In this document: piece by piece, positions 3,990 to 14,793 of the stretch
Layout of the letters: every line of letters begins with the position of its first letter
Numbering within the stretch: position 1 is the stretch's first letter
Source: Novipirellula galeiformis
Lineage (GTDB): Bacteria > Planctomycetota > Planctomycetia > Pirellulales > Pirellulaceae
Length of the DNA stretch: 64,000 nt
Assembly: GCF_007860095.1 (NCBI RefSeq)
Contig: NZ_SJPT01000005.1
Span: 310,001-374,000, forward strand
Direction: 5' to 3'
Translations under genes and position numbers: made by a program
The notes under the pieces: model-generated
Seen by the model: only the letters and a program-made list of their open reading frames with translations
Told to the model about the DNA's origin: nothing
Database searches by the model: none

Positions 3990-4091
3990 CTTTCTTTTCC
4001 ATTGGGCTTTCTTTTCCATTGGGCTTTCTTTTCCATTGGGCTTTCTTTTCCATTGGGCTTTCTTTTCCATTGGCCTTTCTTTTCCATTGGC
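3990..4091. repeat. 17-bp minisatellite, six copies, directly on the tRNA 3' end
   Basis: CTTTCTTTTCCATTGGG is repeated six times head to tail; the last two copies end in GGC. The array starts at the first base after the tRNA discriminator. The unit is not a multiple of three, so the lysine-rich peptide readable on the minus strand repeats every 17 residues as an arithmetical consequence and is not evidence for a gene. Confidence 0.95.
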
Positions 4092-4095
4092 CAGT

Positions 4096-4620
4096 GCCTC
4101 GCGTGGTCGGCGCCTCGCGTGGTCGGCGCACCGTTTAACCTCGCTTCGAACGACCACCCCCATCCGTTACGGCCGTTTTTCCTGTTGCCATGCAATTCTC
4201 TGCCCGGCTGACGTTTCTAAGGCTTGATCAAAGGGGGCGGTGAGCCGGGTCCGGTGGTGGACTCACGCTCGCTGGTCAGCAACTCCAACGAGGGGACATG
4301 CAACCCTCTGGGCGAGCAGCCGAAGTGCATCCTCCTCCAACGCTTGCGACTGCGAGGATCGGGGGGAGAGTAACGCAGAAATGCATCTCGCGAGTCACGT
4401 TGCGCATCAACCTCCTTACCCTGGCGTCCCACGGCGCCCCCTCGGTTTGCTGCGCGCAGCAAGCCAGGTGCCCCCCGCTTCGCCTGCAAAGAGATCGCTC
4501 CAGTGCGGACCGTTGATGAGCACATCGCCCCCGTTCCTCGGCAGCGAACCACGCTGCCGACCCCACACAAACCTCCATCAGAGGGATAAAGTCGGCCCGA
4601 CCGAAAACAAGCATGCGTGG
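4096..4620. other. Non-coding stretch with short direct repeat and hairpin
   Basis: A 16-bp unit GCCTCGCGTGGTCGGC occurs twice in tandem (4096-4127). A perfect 8-bp stem CGGCAGCG/CGCTGCCG with a 5-nt loop lies at 4539-4559. Several overlapping open frames exist on both strands but none looks like protein. I see no gene here until the small peptide gene at 4630. Confidence 0.6.
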
Positions 4621-4629
4621 AGAAAATCT

Positions 4630-4767
4630 ATGGACTTTAACGATATATTTACGGAACCGATGAGTCTTGTGAGCCATTTAACGATTGCAATAAATTTTTG
4701 GATTATTCCATATTGGGGGGTTGTTTTAGTTAAAGCGTCGGACTTCAATGTAGAAGGTATTCAGTAG
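4630..4767 (+). CDS. Candidate small membrane peptide, 45 residues
   Basis: The reading frame starts at an ATG preceded by GGAGA with a 6-nt spacer, a good ribosome-binding site, and its stop codon touches a perfect hairpin. The peptide has an acidic N-terminus (MDFNDIFTEP) and one hydrophobic segment (about residues 15-34, rich in I, W, Y, V). A single-pass membrane peptide is therefore likely. The codons are clearly more AT-rich than the surroundings. It lies just upstream of the Gly-rich exported protein gene. I recognise no family; it could be a leader or a toxin-like peptide. Confidence 0.45.
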   Translation: MDFNDIFTEPMSLVSHLTIAINFWIIPYWGVVLVKASDFNVEGIQ

Positions 4768-4786
4768 GCCCTCTGCGGAGAGGGCC
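4767..4786 (+). terminator. 8-bp perfect hairpin after the 45-residue peptide gene
   Basis: GGCCCTCT and AGAGGGCC form a perfect stem around a GCGG loop, beginning on the last base of the stop codon. No T-run follows, so it could be an RNA-stabilising or attenuating hairpin instead of a classical terminator. Confidence 0.5.
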
Positions 4787-4829
4787 CCAGTTCGGTTTCG
4801 AGATGCTTTAACCTTTGAGGATGTAAAAG

Positions 4830-5231
4830 ATGAACTTGGTACTACGAATTTTGAGTGTTGCTGTTGTGTGTGCATTTTGCGTTGAGTCGCAAGCAGGCGA
4901 TCCGTTCCGCTCGGCCAGCAGCGGTGCGATCTCGCAATCGTCGATGAGTGCCATGGGCCTCAGTGACGTGACTCCAATGTCGCATCAAGAAGCGAGCGCA
5001 ATCCGCGGGCAAGGCGGAGTTGTCTGGGGAAGCTCATGGGCGGGTGTTAACCTTCCTCTAGCAGGTGCCGGCGGCGACAACGGCTACCGCTTCCGTGGAA
5101 ACTACTTTGCAGCAGGTGCTAACCAATCCTACGCCGACGGCTACCAAAGTTACGGCGGAGCTCCATTTGGGTTGGCTCCAGTCGCAGCTGGTGCTAGCGC
5201 TGGCGGATTCTCCATCGGCGGTAGCTTCTAA
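4830..5231 (+). CDS. Secreted Gly/Ala-rich protein with GQGG-type cleavage motif (candidate C39 substrate or fibre subunit)
   Basis: The 133-residue product has a Sec signal peptide (residues 1-22, ending ESQA-G). At residues 50-63 it carries MSHQEASAIRGQGG, which has the layout of double-glycine leaders processed by C39 peptidases (hydrophobic, S, x, x, E, then I/V-R-G-Q-G-G). The remaining 70 residues are rich in Gly, Ala, Ser, Asn, Tyr and Gln with no charge clusters, as in bacterial functional amyloids. An exported C39 protease and a FapF-like channel are encoded downstream. A terminator follows the gene. The role as fibre subunit is inference; I recognise no named family. Confidence 0.75.
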   Translation: MNLVLRILSVAVVCAFCVESQAGDPFRSASSGAISQSSMSAMGLSDVTPMSHQEASAIRGQGGVVWGSSWAGVNLPLAGAGGDNGYRFRGNYFAAGANQSYADGYQSYGGAPFGLAPVAAGASAGGFSIGGSF

Positions 5232-5288
5232 GGTCAATCCTTAAAGCCTAGCTACTAAACAAATCCGTTTGGTAAACATCAACTCAAC

Positions 5289-5320
5289 AGTGTCGATCTT
5301 GGTCGACGCTGTTTTTTTTT
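5289..5320 (+). terminator. Rho-independent terminator
   Basis: AGTGTCGA pairs with TCGACGCT around a 6-nt loop (one G-U pair) and is followed by G and nine T residues. It ends transcription of the Gly-rich secreted protein gene. Confidence 0.9.
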
Positions 5321-5711
5321 GCCCATTCGCCCCCTCCTAACACCCCCCCCAGCCTGCGGTCGATTCCTCCCGCTTTCTTGCTAGAATTGCAAAAAACCCT
5401 GCAATTCCAGCCTCTCTCTTCCCCCGCCTTGGGATTCCCACACGCCAACGCCCGTCACGTGGCGACAACATCGCGCTGGGCTGATTGCCCCGAACTTCCT
5501 GATTGCGCCTGTTAGAGCGACTTTAGCGACAGGTTCCTTTTTTCTCTCCATACCCCCCGCACAACCCGAATTTAGCATCAGGGCGATAGGCTACCGGCTC
5601 TCCAGAAGGAGGCTCAAGCGGCTCCGACTATTCCAAGGGGAAGAGGGGGACGAGATTTCCAGTCCCTCATTCGCCATTCAACGGTTTCCACAATGATCAA
5701 AGGACTGAAAG
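5321..5711. other. Intergenic region upstream of the outer-membrane barrel gene
   Basis: No protein-like frame is seen on either strand. The stretch must hold the promoter of the next gene; I cannot place it with confidence. Confidence 0.5.
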
Positions 5712-6851
5712 TTGAAAATCTTCAAATCAATGAAAACTCGCGTCTGTATGCTTGCAATTGCAGCAATGACGGGGGCTCCTTCGGCCCAGGCTGGCGGCGG
5801 ACTTCACTCGGAGCATGATGCTCACGATCACTCGGCCAGTTACTCAACCAACTTTGGAAGCAACTGCGACGAAATCGGCAAGTTCTGTGACAACGGATGC
5901 CAGACTTGCCAAAGTGACAACGGATGTGGCTGCAACCCTCGCCAATGGTACTTGGGTGTCGAAGCGACGTTCCTGGCACCACTGTATGACAATGGAGCTG
6001 CTCAATTCGGGCTGGCCGACACGTTCGGTGGGACCGGAGTGCTCTTCAATTCGACCCACGACAAAGCGGATGAATTGAGTGGGGCGCCGCGAATCACCTT
6101 GGGTTACGGCGGCAAGGATGGCATTGGAATCCAGGGCCGTTACTGGGAACTCGACAATGGCGTTTCCTCGTTCGGATTTGCACCTGCGATTACTACGGGC
6201 GTGAATGCCGGTCAACCACTCGGTGGCAGTGATTCGTTCAATGCGTACATTGTTGACTTGGAAGCGACCAAGGAATTTTCGCGTGGGCGATGGAGCCTGT
6301 TGGGAACCTTCGGTGCACGTTACGCCGAGTATGACCGCGAACGGACCGATTCGGTATTCGGTGTGGTCAATGGCGATGTGTTTTCGTTGAGCTCGCAACA
6401 GGGCAGCGCGTTCCACGGAACGGGTTTGACATCGAGCTTGGCAGGACTGCGTCCTTTGAAAAACCACCCCTGCTTGTCTCTGTACGGATCGGTTCGTGGT
6501 TCGGCGCTATTCGGTCAAGCCGAGTCGTCGGTCATCACCCACTCATCGTTTAGCGGCCCGCTGAGCAATGCCGGAAGCACAAACGGAGCAATCGGGTTTG
6601 ATGACGAGACGATGTTCATCACCGAATTGCAAGCCGGTTTGCAATGGTCGCGTTCAGTGCGTTCGTTCAACGGCCGCATGTTCGCACGAGCTGGGTTTGA
6701 ATACCAATTCTGGAACACCAAAGATCAAACGGCCATCGCTGGCTCGACCTCTGGCACCCCAGGATCGAGCGAAGGTTTCGCTCTAGCTCGTGGTGCGGGT
6801 AACGACTTTGACTTGATCGGTTTCAACATCTCGACCGGGTTCGCTTGGTAA
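5712..6851 (+). CDS. Outer-membrane beta-barrel protein (Lpg1974/BBP7-like)
   Basis: The 379-residue protein has a signal peptide (cleavage after PSAQA, near residue 27), a His/Asp-rich stretch, a Cys-rich linker (five cysteines within about 25 residues) and then alternating hydrophobic/aromatic strands to a C-terminal FNISTGFAW. A terminal aromatic residue is characteristic of outer-membrane barrels. The strand pattern (WYLGVEATFLAPLY, ITLGYGG, GIGIQGRYW) resembles planctomycete porin-like proteins. The start is a TTG at 5712 preceded by AAAGGA at good spacing; the alternative ATG at 5730 has no ribosome site. It sits between the candidate fibre subunit and the FapF-like channel. Confidence 0.75.
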   Translation: MKIFKSMKTRVCMLAIAAMTGAPSAQAGGGLHSEHDAHDHSASYSTNFGSNCDEIGKFCDNGCQTCQSDNGCGCNPRQWYLGVEATFLAPLYDNGAAQFGLADTFGGTGVLFNSTHDKADELSGAPRITLGYGGKDGIGIQGRYWELDNGVSSFGFAPAITTGVNAGQPLGGSDSFNAYIVDLEATKEFSRGRWSLLGTFGARYAEYDRERTDSVFGVVNGDVFSLSSQQGSAFHGTGLTSSLAGLRPLKNHPCLSLYGSVRGSALFGQAESSVITHSSFSGPLSNAGSTNGAIGFDDETMFITELQAGLQWSRSVRSFNGRMFARAGFEYQFWNTKDQTAIAGSTSGTPGSSEGFALARGAGNDFDLIGFNISTGFAW

Positions 6852-6901
6852 CAAGCGACGCCCCAAGGCAGAGCACTCGTAACCATCATCGGCATCTGAC
6901 G

Positions 6902-6925
6902 TTGCCGCGATCGTGATCGCGGCAA
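6902..6925. terminator. 11-bp perfect inverted repeat after the barrel gene
   Basis: TTGCCGCGATC and GATCGCGGCAA are separated by only GT. The hairpin lies 51 bp beyond the stop codon without a clear T-run. It probably ends or stabilises the barrel mRNA. The rest of the gap up to 7155 holds no gene. Confidence 0.6.
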
Positions 6926-7155
6926 TGATAGATCAGCTGCGATAAAAAGCCTGAAGCTAGACAGATGCTCGGGGCACGTGAGTCCGCAACTTGCGACCTC
7001 CGCGTCCCCCCCTCTTCTCCCTTCTTTGTCTGAAGACGAGAGGGTTCGTTTGCCTCACCGGCAACGAACCCCACGTCACACTCGGATTGGTGATCGCGAT
7101 TCGCTCTGTTTCCACCTAAAACACGTTCACAAATAACAAGCGGGAAGCAAACGCC

Positions 7156-8382
7156 ATGGACCGGCAAAGTATAACTTGGCTGTTCGGAAAAACGTTTTTG
7201 TTGCTATTGTTTGGCGCCATCATCATCCCGGAAGATGTCAACGCCGACGAATCGGCATTAATCGCTTCCGAGTCGCTGTTGATTCAGTCAGACGAAGACA
7301 ACTCAACCGATGCGCCACTACCATTGGATGCGCCCGTGCCATTAGAGGCCCCGGTGCCATCGAGTCGACTAGCGATGCTGATCCAACAGGAGTCGGAACA
7401 GCCAACTCCAGCACCGTTGCTGAACGAAAGCGACGCGTCGGGATTGAGCAGCGACCTCTCGGGCGACTCCAGTAGCGACCCGATCGGCACTGCGACTGGC
7501 GATGCGAGCGGCAGCGCAACGGGCGATTCACCCGAGTCTCCCATCGAGAGTTTCGGTGAAGCTCCGATCGACCGTACTCCTCAATTTCTCCGCTCGGTGA
7601 CCCCGTTGCTCAAGCCAGGTCAAATGCAGTTTGACTGGGGCGCGGTGTACTCGGTCCAGGAAACGAACTTTCCTGTGCTAGTCGGTGGCGGATCGATCCT
7701 GGCACGTGGTGACGTTGTGCGTCGCTCGCTGTTTGTGCCACTGGCAATGCGTTACGGTCTAAACGAACGCACGCAATTGTTCATCAATGCGCCGGTCGGT
7801 TGGTACGACACTCAATTCGCGACCGTCGCGGGCGACAGTAGTGATTCCGAAGGCGGGATCGGGGACACGACCTTCGGCTTCACGCGATTGCTTTCGCAAA
7901 ACAATCGCGCTGGCCGCTCGCTCGTCGGAACCGTGAGCGCGACGGCCCCCACGGGCAACCCGCTCAATCCATTGGTATTCAATGGCGGCGGAACGGGCAA
8001 TGGAGTTTGGCGTCTGGGCGGCGACTTGCTTGTCATTCAGAACTTGGACCCCGTCATCCTGTTTTACGGTGGGGGATACGCCTACAATTTCGAGAACGAG
8101 TTTAGTGGTTTCGACGTCGAATTGGGACATCAGATCTCCTATCGCATGGGACTTGGTTTCGCAGCCAACGAACGCGTGACTCTAAGCGGGGCATTCCAAG
8201 GTCTGTTTGTCACCGAAACGAAGGTCGACGACGTCCATATCCCTAACACGGAGCAAGACTTGATGCAGTTGCGTTTCGCGGCGACGATTGCCAAGTGCAA
8301 CAAGTTAACCGAACCGTTTGTGGCCTTCGGTTTGACTGACTCATCGCCCTCAGCAACCGTTGGCGTCGTGTTCACAAAGTAG
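7156..8382 (+). CDS. FapF-like outer-membrane channel (transporter family)
   Basis: The 408-residue protein has a signal peptide (to about residue 30) and a low-complexity Ser/Asp/Pro-rich region (30-140). A C-terminal barrel of about 250 residues follows, with the order seen in FapF-type proteins: RYGLNERTQLFINAPVGWY, a GGIGDTTFGF turn, a TGNP turn, GNGVW, DPVILFYGGGYAYNFE, GLGFAANERVTLSGAF and a closing SATVGVVF strand. FapF is the outer-membrane pore that exports amyloid subunits in Pseudomonas. Here the neighbours are a candidate subunit and a C39 protease, which supports the same job. The FapF assignment rests on my reading of the pattern and not on a search. Confidence 0.72.
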   Translation: MDRQSITWLFGKTFLLLLFGAIIIPEDVNADESALIASESLLIQSDEDNSTDAPLPLDAPVPLEAPVPSSRLAMLIQQESEQPTPAPLLNESDASGLSSDLSGDSSSDPIGTATGDASGSATGDSPESPIESFGEAPIDRTPQFLRSVTPLLKPGQMQFDWGAVYSVQETNFPVLVGGGSILARGDVVRRSLFVPLAMRYGLNERTQLFINAPVGWYDTQFATVAGDSSDSEGGIGDTTFGFTRLLSQNNRAGRSLVGTVSATAPTGNPLNPLVFNGGGTGNGVWRLGGDLLVIQNLDPVILFYGGGYAYNFENEFSGFDVELGHQISYRMGLGFAANERVTLSGAFQGLFVTETKVDDVHIPNTEQDLMQLRFAATIAKCNKLTEPFVAFGLTDSSPSATVGVVFTK

Positions 8383-8401
8383 TGGCCATGCTGCAAACTC
8401 A

Positions 8402-8449
8402 GGCTGCCTCTCGGATCCGACAGGCAGCCATGTTTTCACTTTTTTTCTT
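8402..8449 (+). terminator. Rho-independent terminator between channel and C39 protease genes
   Basis: GGCTGCCT pairs with AGGCAGCC around a 12-nt loop, followed by a T-rich tail (TTTTCACTTTTTTTCTT). It lies between the channel stop codon and the protease start, so downstream expression would depend on read-through or on a promoter inside the gap. Confidence 0.85.
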
Positions 8450-8468
8450 GCCATGGAGGGTAAGTTAC

Positions 8469-9179
8469 GTGATATCCAAGATTGCCGTCACGATCGCTTT
8501 GGCTTCCCTATGCTTGTCGGCAAGCATGGCGGAAGCCCAGCAGGTGTCGATTGCGGGTCGAAGCGTCGTCCGAGACCCCAAATTCATTTTCCAAAAACCG
8601 GTCGACAGTTGGAAAGAACGCAAGACGCGACACGTGGTCATGCAGCAGCGTGATTACAGTTGCGGTGCTGCGGCTTTAGCGACACTCGTGCGATACTATT
8701 GGGGGCACAATGTCACCGAAGAAATGGTATTGAACGTCGTGGAAAAAATGTTGACCCAAGAGGAGCTTCAGGACCGTGCCAAGGAAGGCTTGACCGTTGC
8801 CGATGTCGAAGCGGCTGCGGTTAAAATGGGTTACAAGACCATGGTGGGTAAAGTCACCTTGGCCAAATTATCCGAGAGCAAGGTACCCGTGATCATTGTG
8901 ATCAACCTGGGGGGCACAAACCATTTTGTCGTGGTTCGCGACATCATCGGAGGATGCGTTTTTCTTGCCGACCCGCTACGAGGCAACATCCGGATTTCGA
9001 CCGCAGGATTGCAGCAGAGCTGGGTGGAAAACGCGATTTTGGTCGTCGCTCCCGAAGGCGAAACCCAATCCTCACGTTCACAGATGGCAGTGACCGATAA
9101 CGAGCGAATCGAAGGCTATCTGAACCGACAAGTGATACGTCGAGAAGTTGCTGGCGGAGTGTCCGCGATTCAGCGATAA
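8469..9179 (+). CDS. Exported C39-family cysteine protease (FapD-like)
   Basis: From the GTG at 8469 the product is 236 residues with a textbook signal peptide ending SASMAEA-Q. GGAGGG lies 8 nt upstream of this start; a longer frame from 8382 would place a terminator inside the gene. The C39 catalytic triad is complete: Cys65 in DYSCGAAAL, His152 in GGTNHFVVV and Asp168 in LADP. Unlike bacteriocin exporters there is no ABC transporter attached, and the stand-alone secreted form matches FapD. The expected role is cleavage after a GG-type leader of an exported protein; the protein encoded at 4830 has such a site. Confidence 0.88.
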   Translation: MISKIAVTIALASLCLSASMAEAQQVSIAGRSVVRDPKFIFQKPVDSWKERKTRHVVMQQRDYSCGAAALATLVRYYWGHNVTEEMVLNVVEKMLTQEELQDRAKEGLTVADVEAAAVKMGYKTMVGKVTLAKLSESKVPVIIVINLGGTNHFVVVRDIIGGCVFLADPLRGNIRISTAGLQQSWVENAILVVAPEGETQSSRSQMAVTDNERIEGYLNRQVIRREVAGGVSAIQR

Positions 9180-9416: not shown

Positions 9417-10826
9417 TCATGCCAAAATGTCGTGAATTACGCTTCCGTGAACATCGGTCAAGCGAAAATCACGGCCGGCATAACGATAGGTCAAACGTTC
9501 GTGATCGAGTCCCAAGCAATGGAGCATCGTGGCATGTAAATCATGAACACTGGTGCGATTCTGTTCCGCTCGGAAGCCAAATTCGTCGGTTGCGCCGTAA
9601 ACCGTTCCCCCTTTGATTCCCCCTCCAGCCATCCAGACACTGAATCCCCAGTGATTGTGGTCGCGTCCCAGCAACGAGGCCCCACCGGCCCCCAGTTCGA
9701 CAGTCGGCGTGCGTCCAAATTCGCCGCCCCAAAGCACCAGCGTGTCGTCCAACATACCTCGCTGCTTCAAGTCCGTAAGCAGTGCAGCAATCGGTTGGTC
9801 CAACTCGCCGGCCAGTTTGCGGTGGCTGTCTTCAATCTTTTCGTGGTTGTCCCACGGTTGCCCAGCACCGTGCCACAATTGCACATATCGCACTCCACGT
9901 TCGAGCAATCGCCGCGCGATCAAGGTTTGACGACCGTGTACGCCGGAGCCATAAAGATCCAAAATGTGCTGCGGTTCGTCCGCCAGCTCAAACGCTTCCC
10001 TGGCATCCCGCTGCATGCGAAACGCCAGCTCATACGATTGAATCCTGGCTTGCAATTGAGCATCGTGGCGGGGCTGAAGGTGTTGGTCGTTCCAGCGGCG
10101 AAGTAGATCCAATTGCCGTCGTTGAACATCGCTTGACACCTGAGGATGTTCAATATTTTCAATGAGCTTATGAAACTCACGATGCTGTGAATCGATGTAG
10201 GTGCCCTGAAACGCGCCCGGCAGAAACGCGGATTGCCAGTTCTCGTTGTCCTTGATGGGCAAACCTCCGGGGCACATGGAAATGAATCCGGGTAGGTTCT
10301 GGTTTTCGGTCCCCAGACCATACATCAGCCACGATCCCATGCTGGGCCGAGTTTGAACGGAGTCGCCACAATTCATCAGCATCAGCGACGGTTCATGATT
10401 GGGGACCTGGGCGTACATCGAGCGGATGACGGCGATATCATCGATGTGCTGTGCCGTTCGTGAGAACAATTCGCTCACTTCGATCCCCGATTCTCCATAT
10501 CGCTTAAACGAAAAGGGGGATGGAAACGCGGCACCGGTTTTGCGTTCGGTCGTCAGCGTGTTCGCGAGCGGTTGGCCGGCGTATTTCGCCAACGCAGGTT
10601 TCGGGTCAAAGGTATCGACATGCGACGGCCCTCCATTAAGAAAAAAGTGAATGACACGCTTCGCACGCCCAGGAAAATGAGGCGATCGCGCAGCCAACGC
10701 CCCCGGCGCGCCTGATTCGGATGCCAACAAATGGTCGTCGCCCAGCACGCCCGCCAGCGCCAGTGAGCCCAGACCAAGGGCGGATCGCGACAGCAAATCG
10801 CGGCGGTTGATATTCGGGTTTGTCAT
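9417..10826 (-). CDS. DUF1501 secreted protein (alkaline-phosphatase/sulfatase-like fold)
   Basis: From the ATG at 10826 the product is 469 residues. It starts with a Tat signal: NRRDLLSRSALGLGSLALAG. The DUF1501 hallmarks follow: FFLNGGPSHVDTFDPKP near the start of the mature part, LMLMNCGD, RGVRYVQLWHGAGQPWDNH, LVLWGGEFGRTP and DHNHWGFSVWMAGGGIKGG. In planctomycetes DUF1501 proteins are almost always paired with a DUF1549/DUF1553 cytochrome, and the same pairing is seen here (gene at 10948). They are thought to act in the periplasm in breakdown of complex polysaccharides, but no activity is proven. Confidence 0.93.
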   Translation of the reverse strand: MTNPNINRRDLLSRSALGLGSLALAGVLGDDHLLASESGAPGALAARSPHFPGRAKRVIHFFLNGGPSHVDTFDPKPALAKYAGQPLANTLTTERKTGAAFPSPFSFKRYGESGIEVSELFSRTAQHIDDIAVIRSMYAQVPNHEPSLMLMNCGDSVQTRPSMGSWLMYGLGTENQNLPGFISMCPGGLPIKDNENWQSAFLPGAFQGTYIDSQHREFHKLIENIEHPQVSSDVQRRQLDLLRRWNDQHLQPRHDAQLQARIQSYELAFRMQRDAREAFELADEPQHILDLYGSGVHGRQTLIARRLLERGVRYVQLWHGAGQPWDNHEKIEDSHRKLAGELDQPIAALLTDLKQRGMLDDTLVLWGGEFGRTPTVELGAGGASLLGRDHNHWGFSVWMAGGGIKGGTVYGATDEFGFRAEQNRTSVHDLHATMLHCLGLDHERLTYRYAGRDFRLTDVHGSVIHDILA

Positions 10827-10947
10827 CACCAATTCCAGTCTCAATAAAGTGCATTCGCCGGTTCAGGCTGATGAGAGCGATGCCTGATGGAGTATCAAAA
10901 TCGCCATATCACGACGGAGTTGTCCGAGGTGCGCGATCGTACTCAAT

Positions 10948-13900
10948 TTAATCCACAAACAAAAATTCGTTGGTGCAAATCAATACCTGAGCAAGCTGCT
11001 CGAGTTCGTCGAGTTGTAAGCGGGTATCTTTCGGAAAATCCGATTCGGCATTCCAGCTTTCGTCTGGCGAGCCTTCGAGCGTGATCTCCCAGAGGTACTG
11101 ATCGCTATGAAGCACCTTGTTGATATCCACGATGAAATCGATTGTTTCGCCTGGCTGCACTCTCAACATGTCGACATTCAAATCGGCGATGTCCTTGTGA
11201 AGACTGGTCGATGTGAGCAGCCCGCCAATCGAGCTGAAGATACTGGCGCGAATTCCATCACCTGGGGTTGCTTGGTGGGTGACTTTGGAACGAATCGAAA
11301 CCGTCATCGCACGTGGAGCGGTCCAGCGACGAACCGCGGCATGCTGAACATCGTTCCCCGGATGGCCTCCGGTCGCGGTGAGTTGAACCCAGCCGAGTTT
11401 GTCATCAGGCCAAGCGGGGCCGCCCTGCCAGGCCTCGCCCGTGAAATGCGGCAATTCCGTAAACCCCTCAAGCCGCTGTGTTGCTGAATCGTAGTGTCCA
11501 AAACCATAACTCCACTCAAGTTCTCTGGACTCGGCTTTTGTCGCCTTTGCGGAAATCGGATGGGTTAACAACGCCATGGCGTCGGCCATCTCGGCTTCAC
11601 TCGGAGCCCGCTGGTAGGCGAGCTGGAACATTTGGGTGATCGCTTGCGGTGGCGGTTCATCTCGCACAAGATTCGCCAGAGCTCGAGCACGCTGGAGCAC
11701 CAACGGATGATTCATGAAGAACAATGCCTGTTGAGGAACCGTCGTCTGATTTCGTTGGGGGACATGTAAGTCCGGGTTAGCAAAATCGAACATCCGCAAC
11801 GCTGTTGGAAAGTACTGTCGATCGATTTGTCCATAGAGGCTGCGGCGGTTCGGAAACGGAGCCACAAACATGTCTACGGGTTTGCCACCGACGCTTCGAT
11901 CCAACGCCCCAGAAGCTTGCAGTAGCGAATCACGCAGTTCTTCGAAGGAAACCCGTCGCGGATTCATTCTCGATAGCAAGCGATTTTCTGGATCGACTCG
12001 GGTCACACGTTGCCGATGTTCGGCGTTTTCAGGCATCGTCGAGCTTTGTCGATACGTTGCCGACAACACGATCAAACGATGCAGTGCCTTGAGGCTCCAA
12101 TCTTTCCGTATCCATTCCGCGGCCAGCCAATCGAGCAATTGCGGATGCGAGGGAGGATCCGCACGCACGCCAAAATCGCTGGGCGTCAACACTAGGCCCG
12201 TGCCAAAATGATGCATCCAAACGCGGTTGACCATCACTCGTGCTGTTAGCGGATTTTGTGGATCGATGATGGCTTGGGCTAGTTCCAATCGTCCGCTGCC
12301 AATTTGGAAAGGTTGCCGCGTCGGCTCGCTGATCACGCTCAGAAATTGACGCGGAACGTTGTCGCCCCGTTTTAAAGGATTGCCGCGCAGAAAGATACGT
12401 GGTTCGACCGGCGTCGCGAGGTCCACGAGCGACACGGCCACGGGAATCGGTTCGGCGGCACCAATCAACCAGCGGTCGACATCACCTTGAAGCTTCCACA
12501 GCGTCGTCACGCTGCTACTATCAAAGAACGTTTCACAGTGCGAGATGGGGCTCTTCGGGACGCGGCACATCGGCGAATTCAACACCGCCCGCAGGGCTTC
12601 GGTATCGGCATCACACGACATCACCTCTGGATCGATTTGGGCAAACACTTCACCGTATCGATCACAAACATCACGGAACGTTAGCGGCGGAGTACAAAAG
12701 GCAGCGGCAATTTCGGAGTTGACGTTTTGATCCCTCACGGACGACTCGTGCCAACGCCGAGTGACATTTTCAGCCTCGGTGGCAAACGTGACCGGGTCGA
12801 GATCAGCGTATGCATGCCACAGTGCAAAGACTGAATCGCGGTTCGGTTTCACAGCACGTAAATAACCTTCCCACTGACGCACGAACGCCGGCAGCAGGTC
12901 CGATTTCTGGAAAATTTGATCAAAGCCATCGGCCGGATATTTGTGCAGTTCGGTTTGTGCGAACAAGTAATCCGCAATGCGTTCACGGGCGCGTTGTGAA
13001 GATTCGCTAGCCAGTTGCTGCATGGTTTCCTGCAGCGTCGACTGTCGCTTTGCTAACTCGGCTTGAAACGCTTCGTCACCAGGATGATCCCTCAGCACGG
13101 TTTGTTTCTCGTAACAGCTGTCGAAAACACCGTAGAGCGAATAGTAGTCGGCGGTCGGAATCGCGTCATATTTGTGGTCGTGACAGCGAGCACAGGCGAC
13201 TGTCAAACCCATCGTGCCACGGGTGACGACATCGATGCGGTCATCAATCACATCACGTCGCACGCCCAGAAAGCGGCGTCCCAATGTCAGTAGCCCCATT
13301 GCCGCCAAGTCCTCCGGTTGGCTGTCGGTGACTTGGTCCGCTGCGATTTGCAGCAACAAAAATCGATCGTAAGGCAGGTCGTCGCGAATCGCTTTGACAA
13401 CCCAATCCCGATACGTCCAAGCCTGGGTCCAGAATCGTTCTTCCCGCGCATACACGTAGCCTTTGGTATCTGAATAGCGAGCGACATCGAGCCAGTGGCG
13501 CCCCCAATGTTCGGCATAGTGCGGCGATTGCAACAGTCGTTCCACGACTTTTTCGTACGCCAAAGGATCGTCATCGTGAATGAACGCAGCAACCTCGTCG
13601 GGCGTCGGTGGCAAACCGGTCAATGAGTACGTCACTCGGCGGATCAACGTGCGACGATCCGCAGGCGGCGATGGCGGCAAGCCTTGCTCGTTCCGCTTGG
13701 CTGCGATAAACGCGTCAAGCGGCGTCTGAATCCATTCCGCATCAGCAAGGTTTTGAACCTCGGGAATGGCGGTCGGCTCAACCGCTTGAAACGCCCAGTG
13801 ATCCTGGCTGTGGTGCGGCGTTTGTTCGGCGGGCAGCATCGACTCCGCGGGCCACCGAGCACCACTGTCAATCCAGGCCTCGATGGAACGTATTTCGTGT

Positions 13901-14280
13901 TCCACCAACGCTTTGTTGGGCGGCATTTCCAAGCCGCCTTCACGTCGGATCGCCGAAACGAGCAAACTGGCTGCGGCATCCCCTGGCACGATGGCCGCGT
14001 CACTATCTCCACCGGCCAATAGCGATTGAAGCGAATCGACTCGCAGACCTCCTTGCTGCTTTTTTGCGCCGTGACATTCGCCGCAACGTTCAATCAGCAC
14101 CGGTCGCACGTGTTGCTCGAAAAAATGCTCTTCCTGTTCTGTCATCACTACTGTGTTTTCATCACCAAACGCAGTGGTAACCAACAGCAATGTCGACAGC
14201 GCCGCAAATCCGGACAAGCAGATTGCACCGGAGCGGCAAAGGTTCCCAAACAACAATCTCGAGGGGGTCACGAGAAGCAT
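10948..14280 (-). CDS. Planctomycete cytochrome C (PSCyt1) / DUF1549 / DUF1553 protein
   Basis: The 1110-residue protein starts at the ATG at 14280, followed by a signal segment (CRSGAICLSGFAALSTLLL). A cytochrome-type CGECHG motif lies at about residues 66-71 in the PSCyt1 domain. DUF1549 follows (FIAAKRNEQGLPPSPPADRRTLIRRVTYSLTGLPPT in pieces, then HYAEHWGRHWLDVARYSDT and ARCHDHKYDAIPTADYY). DUF1553 comes near the end (NPLTARVMVNRVWMHHFGTG, SDFGVRADPPSHPQLLDWLA). An extra C-terminal portion of about 170 residues resembles a beta-sandwich. It forms a probable two-gene unit with the DUF1501 gene downstream. Confidence 0.93.
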   Translation of the reverse strand: MLLVTPSRLLFGNLCRSGAICLSGFAALSTLLLVTTAFGDENTVVMTEQEEHFFEQHVRPVLIERCGECHGAKKQQGGLRVDSLQSLLAGGDSDAAIVPGDAAASLLVSAIRREGGLEMPPNKALVEHEIRSIEAWIDSGARWPAESMLPAEQTPHHSQDHWAFQAVEPTAIPEVQNLADAEWIQTPLDAFIAAKRNEQGLPPSPPADRRTLIRRVTYSLTGLPPTPDEVAAFIHDDDPLAYEKVVERLLQSPHYAEHWGRHWLDVARYSDTKGYVYAREERFWTQAWTYRDWVVKAIRDDLPYDRFLLLQIAADQVTDSQPEDLAAMGLLTLGRRFLGVRRDVIDDRIDVVTRGTMGLTVACARCHDHKYDAIPTADYYSLYGVFDSCYEKQTVLRDHPGDEAFQAELAKRQSTLQETMQQLASESSQRARERIADYLFAQTELHKYPADGFDQIFQKSDLLPAFVRQWEGYLRAVKPNRDSVFALWHAYADLDPVTFATEAENVTRRWHESSVRDQNVNSEIAAAFCTPPLTFRDVCDRYGEVFAQIDPEVMSCDADTEALRAVLNSPMCRVPKSPISHCETFFDSSSVTTLWKLQGDVDRWLIGAAEPIPVAVSLVDLATPVEPRIFLRGNPLKRGDNVPRQFLSVISEPTRQPFQIGSGRLELAQAIIDPQNPLTARVMVNRVWMHHFGTGLVLTPSDFGVRADPPSHPQLLDWLAAEWIRKDWSLKALHRLIVLSATYRQSSTMPENAEHRQRVTRVDPENRLLSRMNPRRVSFEELRDSLLQASGALDRSVGGKPVDMFVAPFPNRRSLYGQIDRQYFPTALRMFDFANPDLHVPQRNQTTVPQQALFFMNHPLVLQRARALANLVRDEPPPQAITQMFQLAYQRAPSEAEMADAMALLTHPISAKATKAESRELEWSYGFGHYDSATQRLEGFTELPHFTGEAWQGGPAWPDDKLGWVQLTATGGHPGNDVQHAAVRRWTAPRAMTVSIRSKVTHQATPGDGIRASIFSSIGGLLTSTSLHKDIADLNVDMLRVQPGETIDFIVDINKVLHSDQYLWEITLEGSPDESWNAESDFPKDTRLQLDELEQLAQVLICTNEFLFVD

Positions 14281-14793
14281 GATTCGTAGATGGGGCGAGA
14301 GGCGGGGCAGGCAGATAGCGAGCAGGTTCCGAATATACCCGATGCGGGGCGGCAATGCTAAGTTTTTAGTATTCCCCCTCCAGACTGAAGGTATTGTAAT
14401 GCCGTAGGCCGCCCCCAAGAGCCTAAGCAAAGGCATTCCGGCAAATGCACTTTCGCGAGAAAAAACAGCTGCTCAGACTCACTGAGTCGAAAACACAGAG
14501 CGGCGTACGACGATGGTGATTGCATTCACCCGTGCCCATCACAGGCCCAAAACAAGAAGAGTCCAGGTGCGGTTTCCATCGCGTTAAACGATCGGTGGAC
14601 GATCGAGCCCGCTCAAATGCAGGTCGTCCGCATGCCATTTGCTTACTACCCATAGCGAACGATTGCCCCCCAGACACCGTCGACAATCGATAGATTTTGC
14701 ATTTTCTTCGGTGTACACTAATCCGTCTCGCACCCAGCGTGTCCTGCCCCGGCGATTCGCCCCTCTCTTTCCCTCCATCCCAGCAGAACTTCG
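14281..14793. other. Divergent intergenic region
   Basis: This 513-bp gap separates the start of the DUF1553 gene (leftward) from that of the DUF1080 fusion (rightward) and must hold both promoters. No convincing gene or repeat is seen in it. Confidence 0.6.

What the first reader, a model, noticed from the sequence alone, without database searches (positions are those of the whole stretch)
4630..9179. Candidate planctomycete Fap-like functional-amyloid or fibre export module
Seen: a secreted Gly/Ala/Tyr/Gln-rich protein with a GQGG motif of the double-glycine-leader type, an outer-membrane barrel, a channel whose strand order mirrors FapF, and a stand-alone exported C39 protease with intact Cys65/His152/Asp168, all on one strand. 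Known: Pseudomonas Fap uses a FapD C39 protease without ABC transporter and a FapF pore to export amyloid subunits. Inference: the 4830 product is processed after GQGG and exported through the 7156 channel. No subunit resembles FapB/FapC by sequence, so if real this is a distinct lineage.
Basis: partly seen in the sequence, partly recalled or inferred. Interest (0 to 1): 0.8.

Follow-up and report, generated by a model that had tools for sequence, protein, structure and literature searches.

The report
Planctomycete Fap-like leader-guided export module
Planctomycete bacteria carry a relative of the Pseudomonas amyloid-export machine, next to small secreted proteins that share a short tag; a similar tag sits in a Fap partner protein (FapE), which suggests where the machine's protease cuts.

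Summary
Window 4830-9179 encodes a secreted Gly/Ala-rich protein, a Legionella_OMP-type barrel, a predicted 12-strand channel whose 18 best PDB matches are all FapF, and a stand-alone exported C39 protease nearest FapD. Channel and protease genes sit together on one strand in 34 of 36 planctomycete loci. In 149 family genomes, 26 of 27 with the stand-alone C39 have leader proteins, against 2 of 122 without; in 392 phylum genomes leaders occur only in the five strongest FapD-profile genomes, one from an unseen family. Leaders precede varied cargos (15 clusters of 76), one matching curli CsgA. An equivalent leader, [LVI][STP]...[LM]...RG[RK], occurs in 12 of 12 FapE proteins of fap-type operons and 0 of 456 other ORFs there; RG[GRK] leaders occur in 10 of 16 held-out FapD-type loci. 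Best reading: Sec export, C39 cleavage at RG-x, exit through the FapF-like pore. Cleavage, export and amyloid formation are inferred. FapD-FapF pairs in other phyla were already reported.

The parts
4830..5231 (+). Precursor of a small exported cargo protein (133 aa)
   Evidence: ORF; relatives near C39 genes in other genomes; no Pfam/NCBIfam family; in a cluster of 17 cargos
4830..4895 (+). Putative Sec signal peptide, residues 1-22 (cleavage SQA|GDP)
   Evidence: hydrophobic N-terminus seen in the sequence; helix 3-15 in the model; cleavage site is inference
4944..5012 (+). Conserved C39-type leader, residues 39-61 (MSAMGLSDVTPMSHQEASAIRGQ); RG at 5004-5009
   Evidence: leader alignment A1, profile hit 1.6e-11 in own genome, position counts
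5013..5228 (+). Predicted mature cargo, residues 62-133, Gly/Ala-rich, ending GGFSIGGSF
   Evidence: alignment A5; model with four strands, pTM 0.37; no PDB fold match below E 2.8
5286..5313 (+). Intrinsic-terminator-like hairpin after the cargo gene, followed by a T run
   Evidence: number of such sites not above shuffles; z -4.6
5712..6851 (+). Outer-membrane barrel of Legionella_OMP type, role unknown
   Evidence: Pfam PF05150 4.6e-10; relatives in 23 of 36 planctomycete loci and 0 of 44 others; 3 PF05150 matches in the genome
7156..8382 (+). FapF-like outer-membrane export channel (barrel encoded at about 7603-8379; disordered N-terminal linker)
   Evidence: one match in the genome
8469..9179 (+). 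Exported stand-alone C39 protease, FapD-like (ORF open from 8382; start GTG 8469 with GGAGGG upstream is my choice); Cys codon 8661-8663, His 8922-8924, Asp 8970-8972

Best explanation
A Fap-type two-step export module. (1) The small cargo is made with a Sec signal peptide and crosses the inner membrane (inferred from sequence). (2) In the periplasm its leader, ending ...MSHQEASAIRG-Q, docks as a short helix in the groove of the exported FapD-like C39 protease, which cuts at or one residue after the RG (inferred from the match in register to known C39-leader recognition). (3) The freed, low-complexity cargo leaves through the FapF-like 12-strand channel (fold supported by prediction, export inferred) and builds a surface fibre or coat, possibly amyloid (inferred). 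The Legionella_OMP-type barrel is a frequent fourth member of unknown role. The leader, not the cargo, defines the substrate: the same leader precedes varied cargos, and an equivalent RG-x leader sits in FapE of fap-type operons.
For: Fold: FapF chains fill ranks 1-18 of the PDB search; the profile finds only FapF in the PDB, the next match having E 0.33. Protease: FapD is the best NCBIfam model; triad invariant in 21. Linkage: FapF-like gene on the same strand beside C39 in 34 of 36 planctomycete loci. Leader: 26 of 27 family genomes with stand-alone C39 against 2 of 122 others; in 392 phylum genomes only five, the five best FapD-profile genomes, including G514 of another family, which has all four genes. 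Register: with G of RG at -2, positions -12 (V/M/I/L in 64 of 67), -11 (S/T 62) and -8 (E/Q 52) coincide with those described for C39 leaders (paper passages); -4 V/I fits too but was part of my selection. Cargo: one leader protein matches CsgA 7.7e-7. Cross-check in Fap: FapE motif 12 of 12, 2 of 24000 shuffles, 0 of 456 other ORFs; FapD-type loci not examined before: 11 of 17, of which one proved to be DNA already seen, so 10 of 16.
Against: No cleavage, export or fibre data. Both machinery proteins fall well below the NCBIfam equivalog cut-offs. No coiled-coil helix is predicted in the channel's N-terminal region. Cargo model has low pTM and no fold match. The residue after RG is usually not Gly or Ala in planctomycete leaders, unlike classical C39 sites. 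G111 has C39 and channel matches but no leader hit, and the two other sampled genomes of the window's genus lack C39 and leader. In fap-type operons the leader is in FapE, and FapC lacks the motif. R-G at -3/-2 was imposed by my selection; G514 has VRA. Six of the 17 test loci lack the motif.
Confidence: 0.74

Rival explanations
1. The leader proteins are the counterparts of FapE: minor initiators, plugs or anchors whose cleavage opens the pore, while the real fibre subunits are other, unrecognised proteins.
For: In fap-type operons the leader is in FapE (12 of 12) and a similar site is seen in four FapA-like small proteins; no other ORF there, FapC included, has the motif.
Against: A CsgA-like repeat protein carries the leader itself; single genomes hold up to 8 leader matches, more than an initiator would need. 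I did not search systematically for other fibre candidates.
Confidence: 0.25
2. The barrel is a COG4313-type (Phenol_MetA_deg) hydrophobic-compound channel and the C39 gene an unrelated neighbour.
For: Pfam PF13557 5e-5; the COG4313 channel 4rl8 is the next PDB match after FapF.
Against: Best FapF match is seven orders better in E than best 4rl8 match (the weakest FapF chain three orders), and the profile does not find 4rl8; tight gene pairing with C39 in 34 of 36 loci.
Confidence: 0.06
3. The C39 protease matures a secreted peptide signal or bacteriocin-like product, and the channel lets it out; no fibre is formed.
For: Leader register is that of bacteriocin and signal-peptide precursors (passages); cargos small and diverse.
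Against: No ABC transporter domain in the C39 protein; FapF-type channel; Gly/Ser/Ala-rich cargos, 67 of 76 without Cys, and one curli-type repeat cargo.
Confidence: 0.15

Closest known systems
Fap system of Pseudomonas (FapD, FapE, FapF)
   Same: Sec-exported stand-alone C39 protease next to a FapF-fold channel; an RG-x leader on a secreted partner (FapE in fap-type operons, the cargo here)
   Different: No FapC match in the genome; channel gene precedes protease gene; extra Legionella_OMP-type barrel; no coiled-coil helix predicted in the channel; leader shared by many cargos; leader has Gly/Ala at -7 and a GL box at -19/-18
Peptidase-containing ABC transporters (PCAT/AMS, ComA, LahT)
   Same: C39 fold and triad; leader with hydrophobic -12 and -4 and E at -8
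   Different: Stand-alone and exported rather than fused to an ABC transporter; leader follows a Sec signal; variable -1 residue
Acinetobacter Fil proteins (FilB C39, FilC channel)
   Same: FilB is the second-best NCBIfam match of the protease (4.9e-21)
   Different: Score far below the cut-off; no Fil partner model matched the four window proteins
Curli (CsgA)
   Same: One relative's leader-bearing cargo (L063) matches CsgA
   Different: The exporter gene next to it is FapF-like; the window cargo matches no NCBIfam family; CsgG not searched

Membership tests
Fap system | Stand-alone Sec-exported C39 protease of FapD type | tested here: met
   FapD best model 7e-28; but 97 bits against equivalog cut-off 330, so not the equivalog itself; Sec signal judged from sequence
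Fap system | FapF 12-strand transporter barrel | tested here: met
   but 57.6 bits against equivalog cut-off 700
Fap system | FapF N-terminal periplasmic coiled coil | tested here: inconclusive
   model shows only helix 7-20 before the barrel, but residues 23-148 are mostly low confidence
Fap system | FapC/FapB amyloid subunits with repeats | tested here: not met
   FapC profile: no match in own genome at E up to 1; cargo matches no NCBIfam family; FapB not searched genome-wide
Fap system | FapE | tested here: inconclusive
   no match in own genome, but no control genome rang either
Fap system | Single fapABCDEF operon with fapD before fapF | tested here: not met
   order here cargo - barrel - FapF-like - C39, with a terminator-like hairpin after the cargo gene
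Fap system | Extracellular amyloid fibres | not testable with these tools
   needs bench work
Double-glycine leader (C39 substrate) | Hydrophobic -12 and -4, E at -8, small residue at -2 | tested here: met
   compared with passages of PMC6363468; -4 and -2 were part of my selection
Double-glycine leader (C39 substrate) | Gly, Ala or Ser at -1 | tested here: not met
   commonest are Q 18, T 9, M 9, A 8, K 7 of 67
Type I secretion / PCAT | C39 fused to an ABC transporter | tested here: not met
   265-aa protein with a C39 domain and no ABC match
Legionella_OMP (PF05150) | Pfam gathering score | tested here: met
   39.4 bits against 25.4

The most novel reading that the evidence does not exclude
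FapD-family proteases define a general periplasmic leader pathway: Sec export, recognition of a double-glycine-type leader ending in RG-x, cleavage, and exit through a FapF-type pore. In planctomycetes it has become a general exporter, one protease and one pore serving a repertoire of varied leader-tagged cargos, some unlinked to the locus and including curli-type repeats; in fap operons the same signal marks FapE (and probably FapA) as FapD's substrates.
Probability: 0.55. Interest if true: 0.85.

Novelty: new variant of a known kind. Interest (0 to 1): 0.76.

Why it matters
FapD is needed for Fap amyloid secretion, but the papers seen here call its target unclear (2017) or undetermined (2018); the 2017 paper suspected FapE from GG and GA motifs and mass spectrometry, yet stated that Fap proteins lack canonical C39 sequences. 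The planctomycete loci reveal a signal by comparison, and an in-register counterpart then appears in FapE of all 12 fap-type operons examined. The question becomes testable with one point mutation. It also suggests how planctomycetes could export many different surface proteins through one pore.

Tried and rejected
GQGG as the conserved motif: rejected, since GG at residues 62-63 is not conserved among relatives. Cleavage one residue earlier (G60 as -1) cannot be excluded; the hydrophobic spacing favours G at -2. Homology of the cargo to FapB, FapC or FapE: none found by NCBIfam (in one search ten leader proteins were scanned, of the 77 distinct ones). Fold of the cargo: pTM 0.37, no PDB match below E 2.8, so not used. 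Curlin by Pfam: no match for the L063 cargo at E up to 1, although NCBIfam CsgA matches at 7.7e-7. G089 leader hit: rejected as chance, inside a 1071-aa frame. The planctomycete leader matrix is only moderately discriminating on single FapE proteins: 7 of 12 FapE leader sites are in the top 25 of 468 ORFs (P 3.4e-7); of the other five, one has its leader site at rank 34 and four score best elsewhere; only one FapE exceeds the shuffle 99% level of 9.4. The FapE motif was written after seeing these sequences, so the later test is fairer; there 6 of 17 loci had no motif ORF, and one of the 11 positives (L255) is the same DNA as L191, which I had already seen. A first, stricter leader pattern in non-planctomycete loci found only 5 of 784 ORFs. 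Leader presence by profile is not complete: 26 of 36 planctomycete loci of the named scan had a hit at E 0.01. Literature: 8 searches.
Full report
The window lies in an unnamed 7.4 Mb genome (G000). The closest protease relatives in a scan of named genomes are from planctomycetes (Rubripirellula 60%, a Planctomycetota bacterium 63%, which may leave out very near records).

Machinery. The 7156 product has NCBIfam FapF as its only match (9.7e-16; 57.6 bits against a cut-off of 700) and a weak Pfam Phenol_MetA_deg match. AlphaFold with 33 sequences gives 12 strands, residues about 150-408 mostly above pLDDT 90. In Foldseek against the PDB, ranks 1 to 18 are FapF chains (5o65, 5o67, 5o68; E 2.2e-19 to 1.4e-15; TM by target 0.74-0.80), followed by the COG4313 channel 4rl8 at 2.4e-12. 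A profile of 20 relatives finds only FapF in the PDB (1.2e-33; the next, a ribosomal protein, 0.33). No coiled-coil helix is predicted before the barrel, in a low-confidence region. The protease is best matched by FapD (7e-28), then FilB (4.9e-21), both well below their cut-offs; catalytic Cys, His and Asp are invariant in the 21 aligned sequences.

Linkage. In 149 genomes of the family, 31 match the protease; 27 of these hold a stand-alone type (E 4.4e-29 or better), and G019, G032, G033 and G044 only weak matches in long frames of 726-791 aa, read here as ABC-type. G104, counted as stand-alone, also lies in a long open frame (721 aa), but an ORF of 249 aa starts just after its FapF-like gene. 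Among 29 fetched C39 loci the FapF-like gene lies beside it on the same strand in 25; the exceptions are L060, L065, L068 and L072, of which L068 and L072 are at contig ends. In the 36 planctomycete loci of the named scan it does so in 34; the exceptions are L158 and L167. The two sets overlap in part, since some assemblies are the same. The Legionella_OMP-type barrel has relatives in 23 of these 36 loci and in 0 of 44 non-planctomycete loci, and PF05150 has three matches in the window's genome.

The leader. Relatives of the 4830 protein were found in 11 of 149 genomes (the window's own included); in 9 of the 11 they lie near the protease gene, in G146 on another contig, and in G127 no protease was found. 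Inspection of neighbouring ORFs showed that different small proteins share one stretch after the Sec signal. In 67 non-redundant leaders the counts are L at -23 in 59, G at -19 in 63, L at -18 in 52, V/M/I/L at -12 in 64, S/T at -11 in 62, E/Q at -8 in 52, A/G at -7 in 66. The hydrophobic-R/K-G at -4 to -2 was required by my selection and is not counted as evidence; G514 has VRA. The numbering puts G of RG at -2, because hydrophobic -12 and -4 and Glu -8 then fall on the positions described for C39 substrates (Leu -12, Glu -8, Leu -7, Val -4; passages of PMC6363468).

Association. A profile of 32 leaders run over the same 149 genomes (E up to 0.01) hits 28: 26 of the 27 with the stand-alone protease, and 2 of the 122 others, G127 (a 78% complete genome that has the FapF-like gene) and G089 (a chance hit in a 1071-aa frame). 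The profile was built on neighbours of the protease, so the informative parts are its silence elsewhere; hits away from the locus (of 12 regions fetched, 9 on other contigs and 2 on the same contig of genomes with the protease hold a signal-plus-leader protein, and the twelfth is G089); and an independent test. Over 392 genomes of the phylum (E up to 1e-4) it hits five, exactly the five with the strongest FapD-profile matches. Four of them were in the training family; G514 belongs to another family and was in no training set. It holds cargo, barrel, FapF-like and C39 genes together. In some genomes not all first-look candidates were scored. Exceptions: G111, whose protease match has an internal stop and whose channel ORF is only 207 aa, has no leader hit, which fits decay of the module, though an assembly fault is possible; and the two other sampled genomes of the window's genus lack protease and leader.

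Cargos. 76 cargos of at least 30 aa fall into 15 clusters at E 1e-3 (41, 17, 4, 2, 2 and ten single); the window's is in the cluster of 17. They are Gly, Ser, Ala and Thr rich, and 67 of 76 have no Cys. One, L063:6730-7338, matches CsgA at 7.7e-7 (Pfam silent). The window cargo and its relatives share an AGG.S.A-type C-terminus; its model is not reliable.

The same signal in Fap. In proteobacterial FapF/C39 loci of the scan, secreted ORFs directly beside the protease gene carry leaders such as LSHQELDKIRGG and VSLSELEESRGK. I then fetched 12 of the 13 loci with the strongest FapD matches among 321 genomes of the class of L205 (Zobellella); none passes the equivalog cut-off. A FapF-profile match follows on the same strand in 11 of the 12, the exception being L274. 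Eight of their proteins, from three loci, were scanned with NCBIfam: one FapC passes its cut-off, one FapB and one FapF match below theirs, three FapE match at 1e-22 to 9e-35, also below cut-off, and two small FapA-like proteins match nothing. FapE, taken elsewhere by position after fapD, has [LVI][STP]...[LM]...RG[RK] in 12 of 12, in 2 of 24000 shuffled sequences and in 0 of 456 other ORFs of these loci; R and G are invariant in the FapE alignment. Small FapA-like proteins with a VILWDE or VTLWDE motif were seen in 4 loci, each with a site of similar shape by eye (VRGL, ISGK, IRAR, VNGR; the name FapA is my inference). In 17 further loci that I had not looked at, a motif fixed before the run, [LVIMF][STPDNAE]...[LM]...RG[RKG], occurs in 11, in 12 of 189 ORFs against 0.35 expected from shuffles; one positive, L255, proved to be the same DNA as L191, so the clean count is 10 of 16. 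The six without it have the weakest FapD matches of the 17 and may be another branch; weaker matches without a returned locus were not examined.

What is in print. PMC5557850 (2017; passages and the whole Discussion): FapD is periplasmic, its Cys is needed for FapC secretion, its target 'remains unclear', Fap proteins lack canonical C39 sequences, FapE alone looked fully N-terminally processed (no peptides in the first ~70 residues) and was suspected as the substrate from GG and GA motifs. PMC6173800 (2018; passages): co-located fapD and fapF homologues in five additional phyla, which the passages do not name, and FapD's substrate 'yet to be determined'. PMC12822426 (2025; one passage): FapD is 'thought to process' FapE's N-terminus and the periplasmic region of FapF. 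PMC3792158 (2013; passages, part of the abstract among them): Fap restricted to Beta-, Gamma- and Deltaproteobacteria. No held paper has FapF, FapD and planctomycetes together; the seven with planctomycetes and functional amyloid have neither term in title or abstract (listing only). So the FapD-FapF pair outside Proteobacteria and the suspicion of FapE are not new; the leader-cargo repertoire and the in-register RG-[RK] leader of FapE were not found in these eight searches.

Conclusion. What computation supports is a FapF-fold channel, a FapD-type protease, their linkage, and a shared leader closely tied to them. What is inferred is cleavage at RG-x, exit through the channel, and fibre or amyloid formation.

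Noticed in passing
L063:6730-7338 (G042): A leader-bearing protein matching curli CsgA (7.7e-7; Pfam silent) next to a FapF-like and C39 gene pair: a curli-like subunit apparently paired with a Fap-like exporter.
   Followed up: partly
L046 (G111:C2 around 335782): Closest relative of the window protease in the family sample (68% identity) has an internal stop, the channel ORF beside it is only 207 aa and no leader hit was found: the module may be decaying there.
   Followed up: partly
L161, L166, L168 and similar loci: Families of short Ser/Gly-rich leader proteins with motifs such as DP.TGS or SGMLIDP, up to 8 leader matches in one genome; no Pfam family for the six proteins tested.
   Followed up: partly
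window 3990-4129: Tandem arrays of 17 bases (5.9 copies, 98% matches) and 16 bases (2.1 copies) between the methyltransferase gene and the cargo gene.
   Followed up: no
window 9417-14436, - strand: A DUF1501 gene next to a long gene (10948-14436), a kind of pair common in planctomycetes (the last remark is recalled).
   Followed up: no
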